This document shows positions 16 through 10,567 of a stretch of DNA of 10,857 nucleotides, one piece after another. The stretch spans positions 1 to 10,857 of the forward strand of contig CAMAIG010000020.1 of the NCBI GenBank assembly GCA_945835085.1. The letters run 5' to 3'. This stretch comes from an uncultured Ruminococcus sp. (GTDB lineage: Bacteria; Bacillota; Clostridia; Oscillospirales; Ruminococcaceae). The notes beneath the pieces were generated by a model that did no database searches, was not told the DNA's origin, and saw nothing but the letters and a program-made list of their open reading frames with translations. Each line of letters begins with the position of its first letter. Position 1 is the stretch's first letter. The translations under genes were made by a program, and so were the position numbers.

Positions 16-1092
16 TTAATTAATTGAACCATCAGGGCGGGGAATTAGCGAAAAACAATTTTGAAAACAATTTGTGCCAAAAATGCAATTTTCTGAAAAT
101 ACTGCTTTTTCAATACCAAAATCGCCTATAAATCCATTGTTGCCAATGGACGCGCAAAGTGGTGCTGTTACTTCTTTTGTAATAGGGCAATATGCTACGC
201 CACTTCCACCTATAGATGTACATTTAGGCAAATCCAGCTTTGAAAAATAGCTGTAATACAAACCGCTATTCGCTATTTCGGTGACCTCGGAAAAATCAAA
301 TTTTTTTAGATTGTAACAATAGACAAACGTCTGACTTGGTATGATTGTAGGCGGAATTGCAATTTCTACTTTTCGCAAAACATAACAATTATGAAAACCG
401 TGATCTCGTGGTAATCCGCCTTTTCCACCAAGTTTTACATAATGCAGGCGGGATTGACGATAAAATGCTCGTTGTGTATGATCTGTGCCTCCGCTGATAC
501 TATCATTATTGACAACGATTTCTCTACCGAGTTTGGCAATTAAAACCTTTGACTCGGGGTTCCCAGTTGGTGTAATCCGTTGTAAAAAACAGCTACCCGC
601 TGAGGCTACGATCTTCACGATATACTGACCGATAGCAGTATAAGTATGTATAGTATCACTTTGTGACCATGATGTACCACCGTTTTCAGACCCAAGCCAT
701 GACTGTATTGTTCCGTCGCCCCAATCAATAGTTAACGAATCATAGCCGGTACCGGCGTCAACAGGGCGAGATAGTGCAAATCCTAAATTGGTGCTTGAAA
801 CATCTACTATATCTACCAACAGATAAATTTCATAGTCGCCCGGTTCCGGCACTGGCAGCCAATCTTCCGGCGGCGTCCAATCCTCGTCACCTCCTCCCGA
901 ACCGGATTGAAAAAGCTCATTTATCGCCCCGGCAAGATCCTGCGCTTTGGTAAGCAGGGGAGTGTCCGGGGAAAGTATGACCTTAGGAGCATTAAGGCGT
1001 ATTACGTCCTGACCGGAAACCTCAGCGCCTATATCTCCGGTATCTTCGTCTGTATATCCATCAAAATAGCCGGATTCCTTTTTGGTTTTCAA
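16..1092 (-). CDS. Tail fibre / receptor-binding protein with PKD domain and BspA-like leucine-rich repeats
   Basis: This 358-residue protein is the last complete gene of the tail module, where receptor-binding fibres usually lie. Residues 1-62 look like a virion-anchoring N-terminus, ending in TKAQDLAGAINELF. A Gly/Ser/Asp linker and a Trp/Pro-rich stretch (66-87) follow. Residues about 88-163 resemble a PKD (Ig-like) domain: DWGDGT at 123-128 and HTYTAIGQYIVKI at 149-161 match the family's WGDG...HxYxxxGxYxV pattern. Residues about 230-350 carry degenerate BspA/LRR_5-type repeats (FHNCYVLRKVEI, FVYCYNLKKFDF, FQNCFSL). BspA-like repeats are known from surface proteins that bind host ligands, so cell-surface recognition is inferred. 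The start is TTG, chosen because GGAGGG lies six bases upstream and there is no nearby in-frame ATG. The gene follows the hub gene by 14 bases. About the last three quarters is clearly more AT-rich than its neighbours, suggesting transfer. An adhesin-like tail-tip accessory is the alternative. Confidence 0.75.
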   Translation of the reverse strand: MKTKKESGYFDGYTDEDTGDIGAEVSGQDVIRLNAPKVILSPDTPLLTKAQDLAGAINELFQSGSGGGDEDWTPPEDWLPVPEPGDYEIYLLVDIVDVSSTNLGFALSRPVDAGTGYDSLTIDWGDGTIQSWLGSENGGTSWSQSDTIHTYTAIGQYIVKIVASAGSCFLQRITPTGNPESKVLIAKLGREIVVNNDSISGGTDHTQRAFYRQSRLHYVKLGGKGGLPRDHGFHNCYVLRKVEIAIPPTIIPSQTFVYCYNLKKFDFSEVTEIANSGLYYSYFSKLDLPKCTSIGGSGVAYCPITKEVTAPLCASIGNNGFIGDFGIEKAVFSENCIFGTNCFQNCFSLIPRPDGSIN

Positions 1093-2118: not shown

Positions 2119-2520
2119 TCAAAGAGAGCCCGACACCGCCGTAACAGCTGATGTCAGGCTTATTTTCATATTCCACAGATCGCCGTCATCCGTTTCTGCG
2201 GCTATGCTTCCGCCTATCTCTTCCGGACGCTCAAACGAAGCCGTTGTTGTGCCGTCTTCCGAATCACTCAATAGGTCGGTGAATTTAACGGGAATAACGT
2301 CGTGGTCAAGCGCCTTTGCAAGAGCAGACGCAGCAGTTTCAGGCAGTTCATTCAGATTTACCGACAATTCGTAACGGTAGCCGCTTCTGGGGGCATATTC
2401 CGCTCCGTCATAATTGGTGAATGAGTGGGGGACAATATCTCTGCGTATGCAGGAGTAGCTTTCAGCTTCCACCCACTCGGAAAAATCAACTCCGCCGATG
2501 ATAAGATTTATCGTACTCAT
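2119..2520 (-). CDS. Short distal-tail (Dit-like) protein
   Basis: This 133-residue protein lies directly between the tape measure and the hub gene, the standard position of the distal tail protein that joins tube and tip in Gram-positive siphophages. It starts INLIIGGVDFSEWVEAESY and is rich in predicted beta strands (YRYELSVNLNEL, LWNMKISLTSAV). It is much shorter than full-length Dit proteins such as SPP1 gp19.1 (about 250 residues), so it would represent only the ring-forming N-terminal half, without a carbohydrate-binding or galectin-like part. The ATG overlaps the tape-measure stop as ATGA, with GGGAGGAAG about 11 bases upstream. It ends CTT TGA, a sequence known from the prfB +1 frameshift. 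The assignment rests mainly on position, size and the strand-rich pattern; 'tail protein of unknown role' is the fallback. Confidence 0.6.
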   Translation of the reverse strand: MSTINLIIGGVDFSEWVEAESYSCIRRDIVPHSFTNYDGAEYAPRSGYRYELSVNLNELPETAASALAKALDHDVIPVKFTDLLSDSEDGTTTASFERPEEIGGSIAAETDDGDLWNMKISLTSAVTAVSGSL

Positions 2521-5456
2521 TTTATAACGCTTCCTCCCGTTACTCTTGATTTATTGTTTGCGTAATTTATGACGTATTCTGCAATGATCTTGCCGTCAAG
2601 TGTGAGGTACAAAGGCTGATTCTTTGATTCGTCCGTTTTATCGGTCTTGCCGCTCTTGCTTTCACTTGCGGTCTGTGATGTTTTCACGCCGCCGGAAACA
2701 GCAGCAGGCGCAGCTGAGCTTTCAGTCTCCACAGTAGTTTTTATAACAGCCGCAGCGTCTGCATTCTCTAAAAGTTTGCTTACGGCGGCGTAAATATCCG
2801 AGCTGCGGTCGTTCAGCTCCTTGGTGAAAGCATCAACGTAATCATCGGCATTGCTTACGGCAGCCGATGCGCTGTCTATGCTGTCACCAACGCTGTCAAA
2901 AATACCGTCAAAATAGTCTGTAATGTCGCTTATGACTGTTTCCTTGGACGTATCAAGACCTTCAACAAAGCCTGCGGCAGATTCAAGCCCGATCCCCTTT
3001 ATTTCTTCGGGAAGTCCGCCGAACAGCTTTCTTACATCGGATACGAAATCATCATTTACTTTCTGAAGCTCACCGCTGTAAAGCTCCTGCGAACGGTCGT
3101 CAATAAGTTTGGAAACCTCATTGTAGGTATCATTTATCTCGTTAAATTCCTTATCGCCCATAGCAAGGAGATTCTTGCTGTACACAAGACCGTCCTTCAT
3201 ATCCATGTTCATTATCTCATTAAGCAGATCTGTGTTAAGGTTACGGTCTTTCAGCTTCTGAATAGATTTCGTAAATTCATCTACCTGCTTTTTGTATTCC
3301 TTGATGTTGGATATGGAATAAATTATCTTGTCGTCGGTTTCTTCCTTTTGGAAGATGTCAAGACCGGATTTAAGACGGCTTGCATATGATTCCTGCTGCT
3401 TTAAAATGTCGTTGTACTTTGACTGATAAGTCTTTGCAAGCTCGTTAAGAGATGATTTGAGTGCGGAAATTGATTCCTTCTGCGACTTCGTCAGCTGTTT
3501 AAGTGCTGCTTTATCTGCTTTTTCTTTGGCTTTGAGTGCCTCTTTGTCTGCCTCTTCCTGAGCTTTAAGAGCAGCTTTGTTCTGCTTTTCCCGGTAAGTA
3601 TTTATCTCATTGTAATACTTGTTATACGCCGAAAGACCCTTTGCATGATAGCTTTCAAGCAGCTCACCCAGCTTGGTGTAATACTCCTCTTCGGATATTT
3701 CACCGTATATCTGCTGCATATTAAGTTCTTCGTATGCAGCCTTGAATTCATCGGAGATCTTGTTTTCAAGCTCTGCATTTTTGGCGTTCAGCCTTGTAAG
3801 AGCGTCTGCTTCTTTTTCAGCCTGTCTGCCCTTTTGCTCATAATACCGAGCCATGGACGATGCATAGCTGTCTTCCGTCTGTTTGGGTTCTCTGCGTCCG
3901 CTGCTGCTGCCTCCGCCCATGCTGTGTCCGCCGCTTGAACCGCTTTTTGTGGATTCTCCATATGCGATTTCAGTAGCTAATTCAAAAACGTTCATCATTC
4001 CGGCAGTCATGAGTTCGCTGATCCTGTTACCTATTTCGGTCAGCCTTTCGGTACAGTTATCAACAGCGTCATTATATGCCGCAACACAGTCGTCGACCCA
4101 TTTGGTGGCTGTTTCTTCAAAATCAAAATTCTCCAGTCCGTCAGTAACGCTTTCCATCAGCCGGATAGGAAGATCAATAAATGCAGTAAGCGCACAATCA
4201 ACAAGTGCTTCACCCAGACTCCAAATAATTTTCGGCACAGCCTCTATCAGCTTCGGTATGGAATCAATAAGTCCGTCTGCAACCCCTATTATCAGCTTTT
4301 CCGCCGAATCAAGCAGCAGGTCAATATTGTCAAGAAGTCCCTGAGCAATTGCAAGAACAGCGCCCACAGCTGCCGGGATAAGCTCATCCGCACTTTCTCC
4401 AAGCCCGGAAGCCAGCTCTGATATGAGCTGTACCGCCGCATCAACAAGCAGCGAAGCGTTTTCAATCAGCGCGTTTGCAATAAGAATGACCGCATCCACA
4501 GCCGCAGGAATAAGCTCCGGCAGCATTTCCAGAATGGCGTTCAGCACTTGTGAAAACAGGTCTGCCGCCGTCTGTATTATGGTCGGCAGCATCGCCGCTA
4601 CTGCATCAAGCAGAGCATTTACGGCGGTCGGAAGTGCAGAAATTATATTTTCGATAACGGGTGTAACGTTGTCAACAACATTGTTAAAGGATTCTGCTAC
4701 ATTCTGACAAAGCTGCTCTATGTTTGCGTCCGCATCGCCCAGACCCGTCACCAGATTGCTTATTGAGCCCTTGAGAGTGTCAATAGAGCCTGTGATAGTG
4801 TGTTCAGCCTCCGCAGCAGTCGTTTCTGCAATATCCATGCTCTCCTGGATAACGTGTATAGCCGAAACAACGTCCGCATAGGAATCAATATCATATTCAA
4901 TGCCCGAAATAGCCTCTGCATCAGCAAGCAGACGCTCCATTTCTTCCTTGGTGCCGCCGTAGCCGAGCTTAAGGTTGTCGAGCATTGTATAGTTTTGCTT
5001 TGCAAAGCCCTGATACGCATTCTGTATTGATTCAATGTCCGTACCCATTTTGTTGGCGTTGTCGGACATATCCGTAACAGCCATATCCGCATATTCGGCG
5101 GCTTTTTGGGTATCACCGCCGAGGGAAGAAATGAGGCTTGCGGAGAAGCCGGTGACGGTTTTCATGTACTCGTTTGCTGACATACCTGCCGTCTTGTATG
5201 CGTTTGCGGCATACTGCTGCACCGTTTCGGAGGAATTCTTAAACAGAGTGTCAACGCCGCCCACAAGCTGCTCATAATCGGCGTATGAAGAAACGATTTC
5301 CTTGCCGAGCTTTACAGCTGCCGCACCTGCCGCAGCGATAGAAGCAGCCATAGCGGCACCTGTTGCCTTAGCCGCCGAGGTAAGACCCTTGAATTCACCT
5401 TTTAGCTGATCTGAATCCCCCGTGATCTTTACCCTTACTTCTCCGTCCTCAGCCAT
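2517..5456 (-). CDS. Tail tape measure protein
   Basis: This 979-residue protein sets tail length, is packed inside the tail tube, and is released during DNA ejection. It is by far the longest gene and sits directly after the chaperone pair. The N-terminus has an Ala-rich amphipathic segment (28-50) followed by the family-typical YEQLVGGVDTLF (61-72) and a conserved block to about 240 (SASLISSLGGD, YGGTKEEMERLL). Residues about 262-435 are strongly hydrophobic and include two tandem 44-residue repeats (314-357 and 358-401) beginning ELIPAAV. A Gly/Ser linker (502-520) leads to a charged helical region, including Lys/Ala/Glu-rich repeats at 627-653, probably coiled coil. The C-terminus LYLTLDGKIIAEYVINY (949-965) resembles tape-measure tails of related phages. 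The start is supported by GGAGGTGAT just upstream, and the gene overlaps the preceding one by 8 bases. By the lambda-based scale of about 0.15 nm per residue, the tail would be near 145 nm (inference). Confidence 0.95.
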   Translation of the reverse strand: MAEDGEVRVKITGDSDQLKGEFKGLTSAAKATGAAMAASIAAAGAAAVKLGKEIVSSYADYEQLVGGVDTLFKNSSETVQQYAANAYKTAGMSANEYMKTVTGFSASLISSLGGDTQKAAEYADMAVTDMSDNANKMGTDIESIQNAYQGFAKQNYTMLDNLKLGYGGTKEEMERLLADAEAISGIEYDIDSYADVVSAIHVIQESMDIAETTAAEAEHTITGSIDTLKGSISNLVTGLGDADANIEQLCQNVAESFNNVVDNVTPVIENIISALPTAVNALLDAVAAMLPTIIQTAADLFSQVLNAILEMLPELIPAAVDAVILIANALIENASLLVDAAVQLISELASGLGESADELIPAAVGAVLAIAQGLLDNIDLLLDSAEKLIIGVADGLIDSIPKLIEAVPKIIWSLGEALVDCALTAFIDLPIRLMESVTDGLENFDFEETATKWVDDCVAAYNDAVDNCTERLTEIGNRISELMTAGMMNVFELATEIAYGESTKSGSSGGHSMGGGSSSGRREPKQTEDSYASSMARYYEQKGRQAEKEADALTRLNAKNAELENKISDEFKAAYEELNMQQIYGEISEEEYYTKLGELLESYHAKGLSAYNKYYNEINTYREKQNKAALKAQEEADKEALKAKEKADKAALKQLTKSQKESISALKSSLNELAKTYQSKYNDILKQQESYASRLKSGLDIFQKEETDDKIIYSISNIKEYKKQVDEFTKSIQKLKDRNLNTDLLNEIMNMDMKDGLVYSKNLLAMGDKEFNEINDTYNEVSKLIDDRSQELYSGELQKVNDDFVSDVRKLFGGLPEEIKGIGLESAAGFVEGLDTSKETVISDITDYFDGIFDSVGDSIDSASAAVSNADDYVDAFTKELNDRSSDIYAAVSKLLENADAAAVIKTTVETESSAAPAAVSGGVKTSQTASESKSGKTDKTDESKNQPLYLTLDGKIIAEYVINYANNKSRVTGGSVIK

Positions 5457-6099
5457 TCACATCACCTCCATGCTTCGCAAGCCGCTGTACCTCAGCATAT
5501 CTCTGCTTAATGTGTTCACGGTATGCCGTGTTTCTGTCGGCGAGAGAAGCAAAACGCCGTATCTTGTGTTCCTTAAGCGCAAACAGCTCCTGCAGCTTTT
5601 TAATGCGAGCCTTTTCGTCCTTGTTTTTTATCTTTGAAACGTCCGTACAGCGGTATTGCATTATCTTTACGAACTCCGTTTCTTCGGTAAGCCCGAGGAA
5701 CAGACTGCGGAACGTCCACCAATGCAGTTCCGCCGTAAGCAGATCTATGCCGTACTGCTGCAGAAAAGCCGCATAAATATATTCGCTGTCATACGCAAGG
5801 TCGTAGCACCGCTTGCGCTTTTTACCCTCCGAGCCTCCGCTTTCCGCCTCCTTGCCGCAGCGAAAATACCACATAAGGCGGCTGACGATCTCCGAAGTGT
5901 GTGTGGAAACGTCAGGCTTGTCAATAAAAAGAGCCGATATTGTTTCCGAAAGGATACTTGAAAAAGTGTTTCTGTCGGAAATATCGGCTTCGTTTATTCG
6001 TATCTCAAAATCCGCCATAATGCGGAAGTCCGTGTTAATTCTGTACGGTTTTTCGCTTATGACAAGGAAACGGGGAGGCTCCTGCGTAAATACGCTCAT
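5449..6099 (-). CDS. Gp15-family phage tail assembly protein
   Basis: This 216-residue protein lies just before the tape measure, where siphophages encode the second tail-assembly chaperone component. It matches the Firmicutes phage Gp15 family (Pfam Phage_Gp15): FRIMADFEIRI near the N-terminus, YDSEYIYAAFLQQYGIDL at 103-120, LHWWTFRSLFLGL at 125-137, and IMQYRCTDVSKI at 146-157. A basic helix (161-182) and a Tyr/Arg-rich C-terminus follow. The known family is defined by sequence; the chaperone role is inferred from position and analogy with lambda GT. Its ATG overlaps the upstream stop as ATGA, so translation is probably coupled. It lies in the -1 frame of the upstream gene, just after a run of seven A residues, so a frameshift fusion is possible. 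AAAGG six to ten bases upstream can serve as its own binding site. Confidence 0.85.
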   Translation of the reverse strand: MSVFTQEPPRFLVISEKPYRINTDFRIMADFEIRINEADISDRNTFSSILSETISALFIDKPDVSTHTSEIVSRLMWYFRCGKEAESGGSEGKKRKRCYDLAYDSEYIYAAFLQQYGIDLLTAELHWWTFRSLFLGLTEETEFVKIMQYRCTDVSKIKNKDEKARIKKLQELFALKEHKIRRFASLADRNTAYREHIKQRYAEVQRLAKHGGDVNG

Positions 6100-6452
6100 T
6101 TTCTTTTCCTTTTTTTGTTGTAGTAGGGGTTGTTTTTAGGCGTTCTCTGCCTTGTAAACGCCGTGATGCCGTTGGAAATATAGGTCAGCAGGTCAATGTA
6201 GTCGTAAATGTTCTTTACTCTGCCTCTGAATATCCTTTCATCTGCACCTTCTCCGAGAAGCCTGTCGACAAACCCTGCGCATTTTTCACACAGAACTTCA
6301 ACGTCCTTTTCATCGGTTACGGCTTTTCCGCTTTCCGCAAGCTCCTGTCCGACCTCTTTAACTGCCTTCATAAGGTCGCTTGTGGCAGGAATATTGTATA
6401 TCTCTCCGCATATTTCAAGCCGTATATACTGATCTCTGAAATTAAAACCCAT
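6096..6452 (-). CDS. Tail assembly chaperone-like protein (first of the pair)
   Basis: This 118-residue protein occupies the slot between the major tail protein and the Gp15-family gene, equivalent to lambda gpG. It starts MGFNFRDQYIRLEICGEIYNIP, continues as a mostly helical domain (SDLMKAVKEVGQELAESG; DVEVLCEKCAGFVDRLLG; YIDLLTYISNGITAFT), and ends with NPYYNKKRKRK encoded by an A-rich stretch. It resembles the small DUF6673-type proteins found next to Gp15 genes in Clostridia phages, though I recognise this only from pattern and position. The start has GGGAGG about eight bases upstream and lies just after a strong hairpin. In many siphophages this gene and the next are made partly as a frameshift fusion; here the stop codon overlaps the next ATG. 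The chaperone function is inferred. Confidence 0.7.
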   Translation of the reverse strand: MGFNFRDQYIRLEICGEIYNIPATSDLMKAVKEVGQELAESGKAVTDEKDVEVLCEKCAGFVDRLLGEGADERIFRGRVKNIYDYIDLLTYISNGITAFTRQRTPKNNPYYNKKRKRK

Positions 6453-6469
6453 AGTAATTTCCTCCCATA

Positions 6470-6508
6470 AACAAAGCCGCCCCGAAGAGCATCTCGGAAC
6501 GGCTTGTT
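6470..6508 (-). terminator. Strong hairpin after the major tail protein gene, probable partial terminator
   Basis: On the minus strand, bases 6508-6493 pair with 6487-6470 to give about 16 base pairs with one bulged U and three G-U pairs, closing a loop of about six bases. The arms contain AACAAGCCG and CGGCTTTGTT. The trailing UUUGUUUAU is only a modest U-tract, so incomplete termination is likely. It sits 17 bases after the tail-protein stop and 18 bases before the chaperone start. A hairpin here could cap the abundant tail-tube message and lower expression of the assembly genes, or stabilise the mRNA 3' end. Confidence 0.65.
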
Positions 6509-6525
6509 ATCATATTTTATCGCGC

Positions 6526-7296
6526 TTAGGACTTTGTAACGACAACGGTGTATTCGCTGCTTTCCGTGTCGTTTATTACCTTGATCTTTACGGTATTTTC
6601 ACCGCTTGACCATGTGGCAGCAGCACCGTTTTCAACAACCGTTTCACCAACCTTAATTGAAATAACGGCATTGTCAGCCGCAGCCGTTACGGTGATAACA
6701 TCGGATTCGTTTGTGGTTGCGGCTGTGTAAGACTTAACGCTTCCGCTGAATTCGGGGCTGAGTTCAAGTGCTCCTATGGCAATAGAGGAAAGCTCGGCGC
6801 TTACTCCCCACACGAATTCGGTAGGCGCAGAACCCGACTTGGAAAGCTCAATGTCAATTGTGGCATTTTCACCGCCGTTTCCGCCGCCGTCCTTGTTTAC
6901 GGCTACGGAAGCCTTGCCCTTTTCGCCCTCGCCCGTGAGCATATTGAAGTAAACGTAATTGACGATAGCCTTCTGACCCGTTGCGTACTTCATAGCGTGG
7001 CTGAGCAGCTTGTCCTGCGCTTCATCGCCCTTGTACATATCGCCCGAAATGCCGAAGGTTCTCTGTGTTCCCGTCTTAGTCGTGGACTTTCCGGCACGAA
7101 GATAGTTTTTCTCTGAGGTTTCGGAGTTAAGGGAAGGGTCAACGCCTTCAATGCCCATCTGCAATACCGCATAATCTTCCACAGCTGCGTCCTGCGCTTC
7201 GGAAACGTCAATTGCAAGCACCATATCGTCAGCCATAACAAAGCCTGCAAAGTCAGCGCTTGGGGTAATGCCTTTCATAAGTTCAGAAAGTTTCAT
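6526..7296 (-). CDS. Major tail tube protein with C-terminal Ig-like domain
   Basis: This 256-residue protein would polymerise into the tail tube. The first 168 residues are the tube domain: an early LAIDVSEAQDA/YAVLQMGIEGV strand-rich part, then KNYLRAGKSTTKTGTQRTF and SGDMYKGDEAQDKLLSHAMKY, as in major tail proteins of Firmicutes siphophages, and VVWGVSAEL-like strands before the junction (seen as EFVWGVSAEL). Residues 169-256 form a separate Ig-like beta-sandwich of the cadherin-like type (LSPEF...SY...AAAT...SGENTVKIKV...YTVVVTKS), probably displayed on the outside of the tail. This domain is 45/88 identical, without gaps, to the C-terminus of the capsid protein. The ATG overlaps the preceding stop (ATATGA), with AAGGAG upstream. 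Ig-like additions to tail proteins are known and are thought to bind surface sugars or mucus weakly. Confidence 0.9.
   Translation of the reverse strand: MKLSELMKGITPSADFAGFVMADDMVLAIDVSEAQDAAVEDYAVLQMGIEGVDPSLNSETSEKNYLRAGKSTTKTGTQRTFGISGDMYKGDEAQDKLLSHAMKYATGQKAIVNYVYFNMLTGEGEKGKASVAVNKDGGGNGGENATIDIELSKSGSAPTEFVWGVSAELSSIAIGALELSPEFSGSVKSYTAATTNESDVITVTAAADNAVISIKVGETVVENGAAATWSSGENTVKIKVINDTESSEYTVVVTKS
6529..6792 (-). repeat. Ig-like domain module, copy in the major tail protein
   Basis: This segment encodes residues 169-256 of the tail protein. It is a diverged copy of the 88-residue module at 8791-9054; both start with LS, share the LxPxF, SY, WxSGxN and KIKV/EIKV positions, and end TK plus one residue directly before the stop codon. 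Confidence 0.85.
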
Positions 7297-7685
7297 ATGT
7301 TCTTTTTCTCCTTTTCATTGTAATAATATTCCACGGACAGTATGCAGGAATAGACCCACTCACCGCCCGATTCGCTGTAAGCCTTGGGAGCCGGGGGAGT
7401 GCCGACCTCTATACGCCGTATCTCCCAGCCGTTTCCCTTGTGCCGCCGCACCTTTTCAAGTACGCCGCATATCTCGTTTATATCATCGGAAAGCTGCATC
7501 TGATTTTTGCTTTTGGCAAGTACAAGCAGGCGCATTATGTTCACGCCGCTGCCGTCAAGATACCGCTTTTTGTTTGTTCCTCCGGCAAACTGTACCGCAC
7601 AGTCAACAGCAGGGGAGAGCCGCCCTATGCTGTCTATCCCTGCAAGCTCCGATACCGCATTGATTATTTCCGTCTGTACCGTCAT
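7293..7685 (-). CDS. Tail terminator-like / minor capsid protein (third of the neck set)
   Basis: This is probably a neck protein that caps the tail tube where it joins the head, judged from its position directly before the major tail protein. With the start at 7685 the product has 130 residues. I prefer this ATG to an upstream GTG at 7730 because it overlaps the preceding stop as ATGA, as at the neighbouring junctions, and has AAAGGG upstream. MTVQTEIINAVSELAG is an N-terminal helix; MRLLVLAKSKNQMQLSDDINEICGVLEKV and IRRIEVGTPPAPKAYSESGG with a WVYSCILSVEYYY strand follow. This alternating pattern fits the Minor_capsid_3 / tail-terminator type of small phage protein. The family name is from pattern memory, not a search. 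Confidence 0.65.
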   Translation of the reverse strand: MTVQTEIINAVSELAGIDSIGRLSPAVDCAVQFAGGTNKKRYLDGSGVNIMRLLVLAKSKNQMQLSDDINEICGVLEKVRRHKGNGWEIRRIEVGTPPAPKAYSESGGEWVYSCILSVEYYYNEKEKKNI

Positions 7686-8038
7686 TTTTTCAACCCTTTC
7701 ATAAAACCTTTTGTGTAAGCAGTTTGCCACTCGTCATAGTGTACGTCCTTCGCCTTGTGGAACCACATCATCTGAGCGTTAGGGTTAGGATCCTTGCTTG
7801 CGCTTTCAAGATAATACTGATTCTTGGCATAAGGTGTTACCCACGCAAGCTCGCCGTCCTCGGGGCTTGAATGTATAAGGCTGCTGTCGATAAGCGTTCC
7901 TTGATCCTGCTTGCAGTAAAAATTACTGTCCATAAGTGCCTGCTGCGACATGGCAAATACACCAAAAGCGTTTGCAGCATCAATATCGGCACCCGAGGGC
8001 AGGTCCGCTTCAACGGTTACGTCAACGTTAAATTTCAT
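7682..8038 (-). CDS. Minor capsid / head-tail joining protein (second of the neck set)
   Basis: This 118-residue protein lies in the neck-gene cluster and probably acts at the head-tail interface. Distinctive positions are the N-terminal strand KFNVDVTVEADLP, LMDSNFYCKQDQGTLIDSSLIHS in the middle, and LAWVTPYAKNQYYL followed by NPNAQMMWFHKAKDVHYDEWQ near the end. This layout (substrate-like W..PYA..YY....NP.....W...A......W) is what I recall of the Minor_capsid_2 family of Firmicutes phages, which is related in position to gp10-like neck proteins. It overlaps the previous gene by four bases (GCATGA) and the next by four, so the three neck genes are probably translationally coupled. GAGGTG precedes the ATG. 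The exact role is inferred from context. Confidence 0.7.
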   Translation of the reverse strand: MKFNVDVTVEADLPSGADIDAANAFGVFAMSQQALMDSNFYCKQDQGTLIDSSLIHSSPEDGELAWVTPYAKNQYYLESASKDPNPNAQMMWFHKAKDVHYDEWQTAYTKGFMKGLKK

Positions 8039-8406
8039 GCAAGCCCCACCTCATAATGATGTATTCGGTCAGCGTCCGCATAAAGGGCGTCTATGACCTT
8101 GACGGTAAAAGTCCGTCCCCCGAATACCACCTGCTGAACTTCAACGGTTTTTCCACCCGCTTTATCCCCCGTAAGAGCAAATACAACACCCCTCGGAGCG
8201 CTGTTGCGGCAGTCATAGATAAGTGTCGCCGAAAGCTGTATAACTGTACCGGAGGTGTCTGTAACGCTCTTTGACGCAGGCTCGATACGGACGTTTTTAA
8301 GGCTTGCCGTGTCACATTCGGCAGCGTTGCCCCACTTATCGGCGTTGTACCGAGTGATAAGCTCCGCCGAATGTACAAGCAGCATTTTAGGGATAGGCGG
8401 TATCAT
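8035..8406 (-). CDS. Head closure-like / minor capsid protein (first of the neck set)
   Basis: This 123-residue protein follows the connector gene. It contains a predicted beta-rich core: VRIEPASKSVTDTSGTVIQLSATLIYDCRNSAP, GGKTVEVQQVVFGGRTFTVKVIDALYAD and a C-terminal IHHYEVGLA. A 'strands, then Asp/Tyr-His-x-Glu' ending is typical of small stopper or Minor_capsid_1 proteins, which close the portal channel and receive the tail. Size, strand-rich content and position all fit. Its ATG overlaps the preceding stop (TTATGA), and GGGGGCGG lies upstream. I see no enzyme motif. The choice between head closure and another neck role is an inference. Confidence 0.65.
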   Translation of the reverse strand: MIPPIPKMLLVHSAELITRYNADKWGNAAECDTASLKNVRIEPASKSVTDTSGTVIQLSATLIYDCRNSAPRGVVFALTGDKAGGKTVEVQQVVFGGRTFTVKVIDALYADADRIHHYEVGLA

Positions 8407-8783
8407 AAAGCACCGCCCCCTCTGTAAAGCAGACCCACGGCTTCAAGATATGCAAGCATAGTCGGGGCGGCGATCTGTTTTGCGGTCGCTCCGCCCGATG
8501 AGCCGCCAGACATACTGAATTTGCCGATAGAAAAACTTGCTATACCGCCCGAATTAAGCCATTCAAGGCCGCCGTTTGCGTTTATGTACTCAGCCTGTGC
8601 GCATACGGCCTTCTTGATATTTTCCTGCATAAAATTCGGCAGCTTGGAAATATCGTCAAGGCGGTAAAGTGTATGCTGCTGTACTATATCGAAGGAACGC
8701 TCCAGAAGAACGTCAAGGGCATCGTAAACCTCGGCACCCTTGTAAACGTCCGTATAGTAAGCAGCGTCAACCGGCGCACTCAT
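8403..8783 (-). CDS. Head-tail connector (adaptor-like) protein
   Basis: This 126-residue protein is encoded directly after the capsid gene, the usual place of the adaptor that docks under the portal. The N-terminal half is helical (YTDVYKGAEVYDALDVLLERSFDIV; LPNFMQENIKKAVCAQAEYI), followed by a conserved-looking turn LEWLNSGGIASFSIGKFSMSG and a Gly/Ser loop, then a C-terminal helix (IAAPTMLAYLEAVGLLYRG). Four helices with a central SFSIGDFS-like stretch are typical of the gp6-like connector family. The ribosome binding site AAGGAG is made by the last two sense codons (Lys-Glu) of the capsid Ig-like domain, so the end of that domain also serves as a control element. Confidence 0.7.
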   Translation of the reverse strand: MSAPVDAAYYTDVYKGAEVYDALDVLLERSFDIVQQHTLYRLDDISKLPNFMQENIKKAVCAQAEYINANGGLEWLNSGGIASFSIGKFSMSGGSSGGATAKQIAAPTMLAYLEAVGLLYRGGGAL

Positions 8784-8787
8784 AGGC

Positions 8788-9945
8788 TTACTCCTTTGTT
8801 ACGGTTACGGTATATGTCTTGCTGTAATTGCCGTTTGTTACCTTGATCTCAACAGCATTATCGCCCGAATTCCATGTTGCCGCAGAGCCGTTTTCAACGG
8901 TGCTGCCATTTACTGTGATAGCAACAGTTGCACCCTCAGCGGCAGCAGTTGCCGTGATAGTGTTGGTAGCGTTTGCAGTAGTAGCCTTGTAAGATACCGT
9001 TGCAGCGTCAAATGTGGGGTCAAGGCTAAGACTGCCGATAGTCAGCGCCGAAAGGGTAGTGTCATATACAGCGCCGCCTGCAGGAGCAAGAGCCGCAAAC
9101 GCCTCGGGCTTAACGCAAAGGTAAGCAATGAGCATAGTTGCCTTGATAGCAACCATATCCTGTTCCGCAAGGGAAAGGGGCTTTCCGTCCTCGTCAAGTG
9201 TGCCCTGGAGCGTTGCTTCCTTGAGTATCTCATAAGAGATCTCTCCGTGTGTGCCTACAAGAGAATACTTCCATTCACCTGCGATAATTTCTGCCTGATC
9301 GTCCTTCCATGCACCGTTGCGCACAAACTCGATAGGCTGACCGTACAGCTCGTTCTGGTTGGTGTCCTGCACGAATACGGGCGCACCGTTTGCGTCACGG
9401 AGCTTGCGCAGACGATTCTTTACGCCTATCTTTGCAGTAAAGCCGTCAACGTCATAGCCTTCCTCTTCCACCTTTGCCATAACGTCCGAAGCCGCAATGT
9501 CAAAGTTTACACTATCTGCTGTAATAACAGCACCGCTCTCACGGACAGCACCCATAAGGGAAGTTGAAAACGGGCTGTTATATCCGAACAGAGCCGCAGA
9601 ATCGAAGGCAGTATAGAATGCCTCCGCAATGCTGTCCTGCAGTTCGGTAAATACGTCGATAGTGGCAAAATCCAGCTTTTCCTTTGTAACGGGAACAATG
9701 ACCGCCAGCTTTTTGGTGACAAGCTCGGGATATATCCACTTTGCGCCGGAAGTGCTTATGCGCTGACCCTCGCCGACCCAGTAAGCACCGGGACCCGACA
9801 CCATAACGGGAACCTTTTTCTTTTCCGAGTTCATAGGCTCCAGACGGGAAAGTCTGATAACGCTTGAACCTCTTGCCACCTTCTTGATGATCTCGTTTGC
9901 CTGTTCTGTGGGTACAAAACCCTGCAGCTGATCCTTAAGATACAT
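8788..9945 (-). CDS. Major capsid protein, HK97 fold, with C-terminal Ig-like domain
   Basis: This 385-residue protein forms the icosahedral shell. Residues 1-297 fit an HK97-type capsid protein: short N-terminal arm (KDQLQGFVPTEQANEIIKKV), then VPVMVSGPGAYWVGEGQRIS (45-64), VTKKLAVIVPVTKEKLDFA (76-94) as the E-loop/P-domain region, the spine helix IDVFTELQDSIAEAFYTAFD, and an A-domain with GVKNRLRKLRDANG and AEIIAGEWKYSLVG. There is no N-terminal delta domain and no visible protease gene between scaffold and capsid, so a separate scaffold is likely used. Residues 298-385 are an Ig-like cadherin-type module (LDPTF, WNSGDNAVEIKV, YTVTVTKE), probably exposed on the capsid surface. AAGGAGG lies about nine bases before the ATG. 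Confidence 0.95.
   Translation of the reverse strand: MYLKDQLQGFVPTEQANEIIKKVARGSSVIRLSRLEPMNSEKKKVPVMVSGPGAYWVGEGQRISTSGAKWIYPELVTKKLAVIVPVTKEKLDFATIDVFTELQDSIAEAFYTAFDSAALFGYNSPFSTSLMGAVRESGAVITADSVNFDIAASDVMAKVEEEGYDVDGFTAKIGVKNRLRKLRDANGAPVFVQDTNQNELYGQPIEFVRNGAWKDDQAEIIAGEWKYSLVGTHGEISYEILKEATLQGTLDEDGKPLSLAEQDMVAIKATMLIAYLCVKPEAFAALAPAGGAVYDTTLSALTIGSLSLDPTFDAATVSYKATTANATNTITATAAAEGATVAITVNGSTVENGSAATWNSGDNAVEIKVTNGNYSKTYTVTVTKE
8791..9054 (-). repeat. Ig-like domain module, copy in the major capsid protein
   Basis: This segment encodes capsid residues 298-385. An ungapped residue-by-residue comparison with the tail-protein copy at 6529-6792 gives 45 identities in 88 positions, with the strongest blocks around TATAAA/TVTAAA, VENGxAATW and IKVxN. 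Both copies end directly before the stop codon, as expected for a tail-on domain added to a complete protein. Confidence 0.85.
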
Positions 9946-9958
9946 AAATTATTCCTCC

Positions 9959-10567
9959 TTATTTTCTCTTTACCTGATTTTCTTTCATAACGTCGATAAA
10001 ACTTGACTTGCTGCCGGAGCTGTCGGAAATGACCTGAGTTTTTGCGCCGGTGGTAATGCCCCTTGCTATCTGCTGTACGCCGTTATCCTTGCCGCCGCTG
10101 AAAACGGGGTATTTTTCGATAACCTTTTCCACAGCCTTGTCAATGGTTGTGTTGTCGTCAACGTACTTTGCGGCAAGAGCCATTACATCGTCCACATACT
10201 GAGGTGCAACACCCCTTGAAAGGCAGGAAACCTTGATTTCAAGTGCCTCTTTATCCTTTTCGGCAGCTTCCTTTGCGCTGTTGGCTGCGGCAAGGTCGTC
10301 GGCGGCTTTCTGCTCAGCCGTTTTCTGTGAATCCTTCCACTCTCTGTATGCTTTCAGCTCTTCCTTGGACGGCATATCCTTTTTAGCACGGTCAAGCCTC
10401 TGCTTGACAATGTCGTCAAGCTCCTTCTGCGTAAATGTTTTTTCCGCCTGCGCAGGTTCGGGCGTAGATACAGCGTTCACGGTGTTACCCGTGCCGCCCT
10501 TTGGATCACCTCCGCTGTTTTCAGCCTGTTCGGTTTCGGTTACGGTTGTGTTTGTTTCTTCTGCCAT
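9959..10567 (-). CDS. Capsid scaffold protein (DUF4355 / GP20-like)
   Basis: This 202-residue protein directly precedes the capsid gene, as scaffold genes do. It starts with an acidic, Gly/Pro/Thr-rich, likely disordered segment (1-42). TFTQKELDDIVKQRLDRAKK (44-63) is the recognisable motif of the DUF4355/GP20-like scaffold family. A highly charged coiled-coil helix follows (about 66-112, including EQKAADDLAAANSAKEAAEK). Next comes a small domain SRGVAPQYVDDVMALAAKYVDD with TIDKAVEKVIEKYP, and the protein ends in a basic tail (ENQVKRK), the part that usually contacts the capsid protein. It would guide shell assembly and then leave. AAAAGGAGG lies about six bases before the ATG. The gap to the capsid gene is 13 bases, so the two are co-transcribed. 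No protease motif is visible. Confidence 0.85.
   Translation of the reverse strand: MAEETNTTVTETEQAENSGGDPKGGTGNTVNAVSTPEPAQAEKTFTQKELDDIVKQRLDRAKKDMPSKEELKAYREWKDSQKTAEQKAADDLAAANSAKEAAEKDKEALEIKVSCLSRGVAPQYVDDVMALAAKYVDDNTTIDKAVEKVIEKYPVFSGGKDNGVQQIARGITTGAKTQVISDSSGSKSSFIDVMKENQVKRK

What the first reader, a model, noticed from the sequence alone, without database searches (positions are those of the whole stretch)
6529..9054. The same Ig-like domain is fused to both the major capsid and the major tail protein
Seen: the last 88 residues of the capsid (8791-9054) and tail-tube (6529-6792) proteins align without a gap with 45 identities and both end at the stop codon. Known: Ig-like domains occur on phage capsid or tail proteins and are proposed to bind sugars or mucus. 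Inferred: one module was duplicated or captured twice within this phage, so hundreds of copies would coat head and tail alike, giving uniform surface display. Paired decoration of both shells with near-sister modules is unusual enough to follow up.
Basis: partly seen in the sequence, partly recalled or inferred. Interest (0 to 1): 0.7.

Follow-up and report, generated by a model that had tools for sequence, protein, structure and literature searches.

The report
Matching surface domains on head and tail
A phage in a gut-type bacterium's genome assembly ends both its main head protein and its main tail protein in similar Ig-like domains, a pairing already described in other phages, and here the two copies more likely have separate histories than one being a copy of the other.

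Summary
Observation confirmed. The last 88 residues of the major capsid protein (8788-9945, minus strand) and major tail protein (6526-7296, minus strand) share 45 ungapped identities. Both match Pfam PF12733, a cadherin-like (Ig-like) beta sandwich.

The inference of one module duplicated in this phage is not supported, though not excluded. The capsid copy is closest to other capsid copies (up to 96%), the tail copy to two other tail copies (92%, 73%). 18 of 126 other non-tail domains score above its own capsid mate. Sisterhood is disfavoured here (p 0.087) and rejected in two other genomes carrying both copies (p below 0.001). Related tail cores carry no domain, another cadherin-like lineage, or Big_5. 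The nearest domain-bearing core outside the window's group carries another lineage (p 0.0016 against shared descent; test chosen afterwards).

Paired, related head and tail extensions are in print for mycobacteriophages Bxb1, LeBron and Wildcat; Douge has Ig-like domains on both. Outward display is likely for the tail (lambda-like tube protein) and, by homology only, for the capsid. Glycan or mucus binding is inference. New member of a known kind; modest interest.

The parts
8788..9945 (-). major capsid protein, 385 aa: HK97-fold core (residues 1 to about 290) plus C-terminal cadherin-like domain
   Evidence: PF05065 E 1.1e-31; phrog_10 major head protein E 2e-66; core matches chain 6b0x_A, a major head protein (recalled: phage 80alpha), E 7.2e-46 over residues 6-290
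8791..9054 (-). C-terminal cadherin-like beta-sandwich domain of the capsid protein (88 residues, to the stop)
   Evidence: PF12733 E 1.2e-12; the ten best-scoring relatives are all capsid domains, 96% to 71% identical
6526..7296 (-). major tail (tail tube) protein, 256 aa: tube core (residues 1 to about 163) plus C-terminal cadherin-like domain
   Evidence: phrog_820 major tail protein E 2.4e-23; AlphaFold2 model pLDDT 79.7, best Foldseek match lambda gpV E 9.1e-7 over 275 columns
6529..6792 (-). C-terminal cadherin-like beta-sandwich domain of the tail protein (88 residues, to the stop)
9959..10567 (-). head scaffolding protein, directly upstream of the capsid gene
   Evidence: phrog_2303 E 1.4e-29
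8403..8783 (-). head-tail adaptor, 4 bases after the capsid stop
   Evidence: phrog_541 E 9.4e-29; spacing
8035..8406 (-). head-tail adaptor / Minor_capsid_1
   Evidence: PF10665 E 1.7e-14; phrog_793
7682..8038 (-). Minor_capsid_2 / minor head protein
   Evidence: PF11114 E 1.5e-10; phrog_556
7293..7730 (-). minor head protein, directly upstream of the tail gene
   Evidence: phrog_913 E 5.3e-10
5449..6099 (-). Phage_Gp15 family protein downstream of the tail gene
   Evidence: PF06854 E 1.3e-38
2517..5456 (-). tape measure protein, 979 aa
   Evidence: phrog_6900 E 3.3e-78, phrog_3981 E 9.7e-70

Best explanation
Its capsid and tail-tube proteins each end in a cadherin-like (PF12733) beta-sandwich domain at a C-terminal 'slot' that relatives fill differently or leave empty. 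The capsid copy is long-standing in its clade of capsids. The tail copy is an optional attachment, present in a minority of related tails, and was acquired separately from the phage pool of such domains. Shown: the domains, their hosts, the patchy occurrence on tails. Supported by tree tests: the tail domain does not share descent with the domain on its nearest domain-bearing relative outside its own group. Inferred: both project outward and act as many weak binding sites (avidity) that hold the virion to glycans of the host cell or its surroundings before the tail tip engages. The donor of the tail copy is not identified.
For: Capsid slot: 118 of the 120 listed closest capsid proteins carry the domain by my HMM and cut-off; the two others, P0160 and P0164, hold only part of it (alignment). 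Tail slot: 14 of the 120 listed tail proteins carry it. In the eight contigs where both genes match strongly (window, L041-L047), the capsid has it in 8 of 8 and the tail in 3 of 8. Tail-core tree of 101 rows (15 with, 86 without): the label changes at least 7 times, and the window's core (99% to P0001) lies next by path to P0005, which has no domain. Domain tree: window tail copy + P0001 + P0002 form one clade (100/99), and eleven other tail copies, including P0003, another (100/98); P0006 stands apart. Forcing P0003 (nearest domain-bearing core outside the P0001/P0002 group) to join the window tail copies is rejected, AU p 0.0016. Own mate is not the nearest non-tail domain: 18 of 126 score higher. 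The slots take other domains: Big_5 on tail P0087; SbsC C-terminal domain on capsids L056, L069, L085. Outward display: tail model matches lambda gpV; in print, preliminary structural work puts the C-terminal extension of the Bxb1 capsid outside, and Douge capsid and tail Ig-like domains protrude and, isolated, bind host glycans.
Against: The domain tree rests on 90 columns and many forks are unresolved. Sisterhood of the window's two copies is not rejected at 5% (p 0.087; p 0.133 with P0127 added), nor is one clade of all 15 tail copies (p 0.30). One of the 18 higher-scoring domains is P0121, the near-copy of the window's own capsid domain, so score differences of this size are small. The P0003 test was chosen after I had seen the trees, and the tail-core bootstrap had not settled. 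The closeness of the capsid list is biased, because the query contained the domain: of the 80 capsid loci from the viral collection (at most 66% identity) none carries it by my HMM, one of them (L126) being cut by its contig end. Some listed tail proteins may be cut by contig ends, which I did not check. Only three contigs with both copies were in hand as DNA, plus one pair (P0014/P0134) inferred only from equal contig length. The whole-length match to gpV has TM-score 0.37 and rmsd 13.9, so core and domain match but not their mutual placement. The capsid model is poor outside the domain (pLDDT 57.7), so outward placement of the capsid copy rests on homology alone. No result here bears on what the domains bind.
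Confidence: 0.7

Rival explanations
1. One reading: one domain was duplicated from capsid gene to tail gene within an ancestor of this phage, and the two copies are sisters kept alike so that head and tail bind the same target.
For: At two sites the window tail copy shares the gap pattern of capsid copies, unlike eleven other tail copies. Sisterhood is not rejected (p 0.087 and 0.133). Slightly more shared codons than usage predicts, 23 against 16.1, s.d. 3.1.
Against: 18 of 126 other non-tail domain sequences score higher against the tail copy than its own mate does, 17 without the near-copy P0121. The best tree is 24.8 log units better than the best found with the two clades held together. 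In the tree the tail clade sits beside domains appended to other head proteins (88/81, not starred). In genomes L041 and L047 sisterhood is rejected.
Confidence: 0.17
2. The tail copy is an old, vertically inherited part of this tail family, lost many times.
For: One clade of all 15 tail copies is not rejected (p 0.30). Changes on an unrooted tree cannot separate gain from loss.
Against: Vertical descent predicts that the domain of P0003, whose core is next to the window group (100/97), joins the window tail copies. It joins the other tail lineage instead (100/98), and the forced grouping is rejected (p 0.0016; chosen after seeing the trees).
Confidence: 0.1
3. The domains serve stability or assembly (a clamp on shell and tube) rather than binding.
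For: In print, the Douge capsid Ig-like domains take part in contacts between neighbouring subunits (passage), and Bxb1 extensions could be removed but not replaced in the constructs tried (passages).
Against: Relatives of the tail core lack the domain altogether, and in Bxb1 both extensions can be removed with a viable phage.
Confidence: 0.15

Closest known systems
Mycobacteriophage Bxb1 capsid gp14 and tail tube gp19 C-terminal extensions (PMC8704799; passages read)
   Same: [quoted passage not shown] 35/85 in my BLASTP), absent from closely related phages, dispensable.
   Different: Pfam gives no PF12733 on either Bxb1 protein, so a different domain family by that test. A phage of mycobacteria.
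Mycobacteriophages LeBron and Wildcat (PMC3029335; passages read)
   Same: Major capsid and major tail proteins share a common C-terminal extension of about 70 residues, related to Ig-like domains; the paper puts them at more than 750 copies per virion.
   Different: Not compared by sequence here; other hosts.
Mycobacteriophage Douge (PMC13033339; passages and section 14 read)
   Same: C-terminal Ig-like domains on both capsid and tail tube, 919 copies projecting outward. Isolated domains bind host glycans.
   Different: Whether its two domains resemble each other in sequence was not examined here. The binding is to mycobacterial glycans.
Lambda tail tube protein gpV
   Same: Tail tube fold with a C-terminal Ig-like domain; best Foldseek match of the tail model.
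   Different: The Ig-like domain is Big_2 in lambda (table in PMC9022992), PF12733 here. Whether the lambda capsid protein carries such a domain was not looked at.

Membership tests
Pfam PF12733 cadherin-like beta sandwich domain | score above the curated cut-off (24.2 bits) | tested here: met
   48.5 bits (capsid), 30.3 bits (tail)
Pfam PF12733 cadherin-like beta sandwich domain | Ig-like beta-sandwich fold | tested here: met
   [not shown]
HK97-fold major capsid protein | PF05065 / phrog_10 core and solved relatives by sequence | tested here: met
HK97-fold major capsid protein | predicted three-dimensional fold | tested here: inconclusive
   model pLDDT 57.7, core unreliable; not searched
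siphophage tail tube protein | tail tube fold | tested here: met
   lambda gpV, monocin and SPP1 tube proteins among the best matches; phrog_820
phages with paired, sequence-related C-terminal domains on capsid and tail tube (Bxb1 type) | related C-terminal domains on both major proteins of one genome | tested here: met
   45 of 88 identities
phages with paired, sequence-related C-terminal domains on capsid and tail tube (Bxb1 type) | extension absent from close relatives | tested here: inconclusive
   for the tail, 106 of 120 listed relatives lack it by my HMM. For the capsid, 118 of 120 listed relatives carry it and only more distant ones lack it (80 of 80 loci, one cut)
bacteriophage adherence to mucus / glycan-binding Ig-like domains | binding to mucin or other glycans | not testable with these tools
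   needs a binding assay
Ig-like domains appended by programmed frameshift | domain in another frame, slippery site at the junction | tested here: not met
   both window copies are in frame with their hosts; the only X-XXY-YYZ heptamers in the two genes lie away from the junctions

The most novel reading that the evidence does not exclude
Head and tail slots of these phages draw on one shared, phage-specific pool of cadherin-like domains, and selection for a common target makes lineages such as this one swap a capsid-type domain onto the tail in place of the usual tail-type domain, so that head and tail converge on the same ligand by module exchange rather than by duplication.
Probability: 0.15. 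Interest if true: 0.45.

Novelty: new member of a known kind. Interest (0 to 1): 0.27.

Why it matters
It extends the paired head-and-tail decoration known from mycobacteriophages to phages near Oscillospiraceae-type bacteria, with domain family PF12733. Two searches of the held papers for cadherin-like domains with phage terms listed three papers. In the passages I saw, one lists a phage gene for a cadherin-like beta sandwich protein not tied to head or tail, one gave no phage domain, and the third I did not open. The tails also give a natural series, related cores with no domain, with one lineage of it, or with another, on which the role of such domains could be tested.

Tried and rejected
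Recent gene duplication or gene conversion: rejected as recent, because the DNA is 59% identical and third positions 45%. Programmed frameshift at the window's junctions: none. Listeria phage PSA as a precedent: its record shows slippage extensions on capsid and tail, but these end only 142 and 73 bases after the short forms, too short for such a domain, so I dropped it without comparing sequences. Capsid structure as direct proof of outward placement: model too poor, not searched. Solved relatives of the tail profile by sequence: none at E 0.01. Named phage records with this domain: 2 of 50,697 match the capsid copy at E 1e-3, both unannotated records from human faecal samples; the tail query found two records matching only in the domain. 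Tail relatives in the viral collection: 1 locus by single sequence, which is a domain-only match, 3 by alignment.

Rows dropped before counts: for the domain tree, capsid copies over 82% alike by position to one already kept (five named ones excepted), duplicate loci and weak hits; 55 rows kept of 174 domain hits. For the tail-core tree, rows without a domain over 88% alike to one already kept (three named ones excepted), duplicates, and hits at or below 140 bits; 101 kept. Three loci (L053, L054, L065) with a capsid lacking the domain and a weak tail match (20 bits) were left out of the eight-contig count. In the 126-domain count identical sequences and the window's own copies were dropped.

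Because of these, confidence in the best explanation went from 0.72 to 0.70 and in the duplication rival from 0.15 to 0.17.
Full report
Check of the observation. The window is a whole contig (C20, 10,857 bases) of an unnamed 2.17 Mb genome assembly in 420 contigs. On the minus strand it carries, in order, a scaffolding protein, the major capsid protein (8788-9945), four small head or head-tail proteins, the major tail protein (6526-7296), two further genes, the tape measure gene and more genes. The last 88 residues of capsid and tail proteins share 45 ungapped identities; 20,000 shuffles of one copy reached at most 21, and BLASTP gives E 2e-23. Both match PF12733.

Where else the domain sits. 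Of the 120 listed tail proteins (of 500 with E at most 0.001), 14 carry it; of the 120 listed capsids (of 2,099), 118 do by my HMM and cut-off. The capsid figure is inflated because the query held the domain. Of the 80 more distant capsid loci kept from the viral collection (80 of 487 found), none has it, one being cut by its contig end. Three of those carry instead the SbsC C-terminal domain at the same site. In eight contigs with strong matches to both genes, capsid copies are present in 8 and tail copies in 3. Related domains occur on two other major tail families (phrog_88 in L031; phrog_117 in L140) and next to four other head proteins in an overlapping frame (L003, L025, L026, L171). One tail relative, P0087, carries Big_5 at the same site. 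In 396 genomes of the same family, 16 places in 12 genomes match the domain profile above 80 bits. In two genomes, this one and G289, two such places lie on one contig; the next best match is 60 bits, in a 1,828-residue frame. The profile was built from phage copies, so this gap suggests, but does not prove, that phage copies are a set apart from those of large proteins.

Are the two copies sisters? In the domain tree (55 rows, 90 columns) the window tail copy groups with P0001 and P0002 (100/99), and the window capsid copy with P0121 and P0127 (98/89). The best-scoring non-tail relatives of the tail copy are not its own mate: 18 of 126 distinct other domains score higher, one of them P0121, the near-copy of the window's capsid domain. 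Holding the two window clades together costs 24.8 log units but is not rejected (AU p 0.087); with P0127 added it costs 16.3 (p 0.133). For L047 and L041 the same grouping is rejected (p 0.00016, 0.00003). One clade of all 15 tail copies is not rejected (p 0.30). The short alignment limits every such test.

Is the tail copy inherited with its tail core? The tail-core tree (101 rows; bootstrap not settled) puts window, P0001, P0002, P0005 (no domain) and P0003 (domain) together (100/97), and the label changes at least seven times. If the domain were inherited with the core, the domain of P0003 should join the window's. It joins the other tail lineage instead (100/98), and forcing it is rejected (p 0.0016; test chosen after seeing the trees). 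The tail slot has therefore probably changed occupant at least once among close relatives. Tail copies of the other lineage also differ from capsid copies by gaps at two sites that the window's tail copy does not have.

How it most likely works. Shown: two in-frame C-terminal domains on the two major structural proteins, and patchy, exchangeable occupancy among relatives. From the literature: such domains project outward on tail tubes (PMC9022992, passages); for Bxb1, preliminary structural work puts the capsid extension outside and both extensions are dispensable (PMC8704799, passages); in Douge the capsid and tail Ig-like domains protrude, 919 in all, and the isolated domains bind host glycans (PMC13033339, passages and section 14). 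A 2026 study reports that gut phages with Ig-like-domain proteins adhere to epithelial cell layers; the types named in the part I read are BACON, PKD and Big2, besides unspecified ones (PMC13370021, abstract and one results section). Inferred: here too the domains give many weak contacts to cell or environment; which, I cannot say. Recalled rules of thumb (415 capsid subunits if T=7; about 1.5 angstrom of tail per tape-measure residue, so about 150 nm and some 220 tail subunits) would give roughly 600 copies; neither number was measured.

Comparison with what is known. Related C-terminal extensions on capsid and tail tube are in print for Bxb1 (47% identity) and for LeBron and Wildcat; Ig-like domains on both are in print for Douge. 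I found 35 of 85 identities in Bxb1 and no PF12733 there. Attachment of Ig-like domains by frameshift and their movement between phages are also reviewed in print (PMC5009743, passages). What is added here is the domain family, the host group, and evidence that head and tail copies probably have separate histories. Two searches of the held papers for cadherin-like domains with phage terms listed 1 and 2 papers. Passages of two of them show a phage gene so annotated without a head or tail role (PMC5478533) and no phage domain (PMC12617251); PMC8519021 was seen in the listing only. The original Ig-like domain survey of 2006 is known to me only through citing papers and recall.

Noticed in passing
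L026:1440-1560, L025 (minus strand, near 1773), L003:1950-2080: The same domain lies in a minus-one frame overlapping the end of a head gene. At two of the three junctions a heptamer of the slippery type (A-AAA-AAA in L026, A-AAC-CCC in L025) precedes the stop, suggesting expression by frameshift.
   Followed up: partly
L171:1495-1776: A domain-only ORF that starts by overlapping the stop of a phrog_544 head gene; it may be a separate overlapping gene or a frameshift extension.
   Followed up: no
window 16-1092 (-): The last gene of the tail module has BspA-type leucine-rich repeats (PF13306, E 6.4e-11) and a weak PKD-like stretch (E 0.05, under the cut-off), so it may be a tip or adhesin protein.
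   Followed up: partly
L056:2885-4051, L069:1597-2769, L085:4989-6164: Related capsids carry the SbsC S-layer C-terminal domain (PF18316) at the same C-terminal site.
   Followed up: no
window 6474-6505 (-): A terminator-like hairpin (13 pairs, 7 G-C) with a T-rich tail lies between the tail gene and the next gene (3 such sites found in 6400-6700, 0.3 expected); phage PSA has a terminator annotated at the same place.
   Followed up: partly
G408:C23, G511:C199, G513:C106, G576:C35, G620:C131: In other genomes of the order, pairs of neighbouring frames of about 500 to 700 residues (one of 264) each hold a weak match to the domain, perhaps a host surface system.
   Followed up: no
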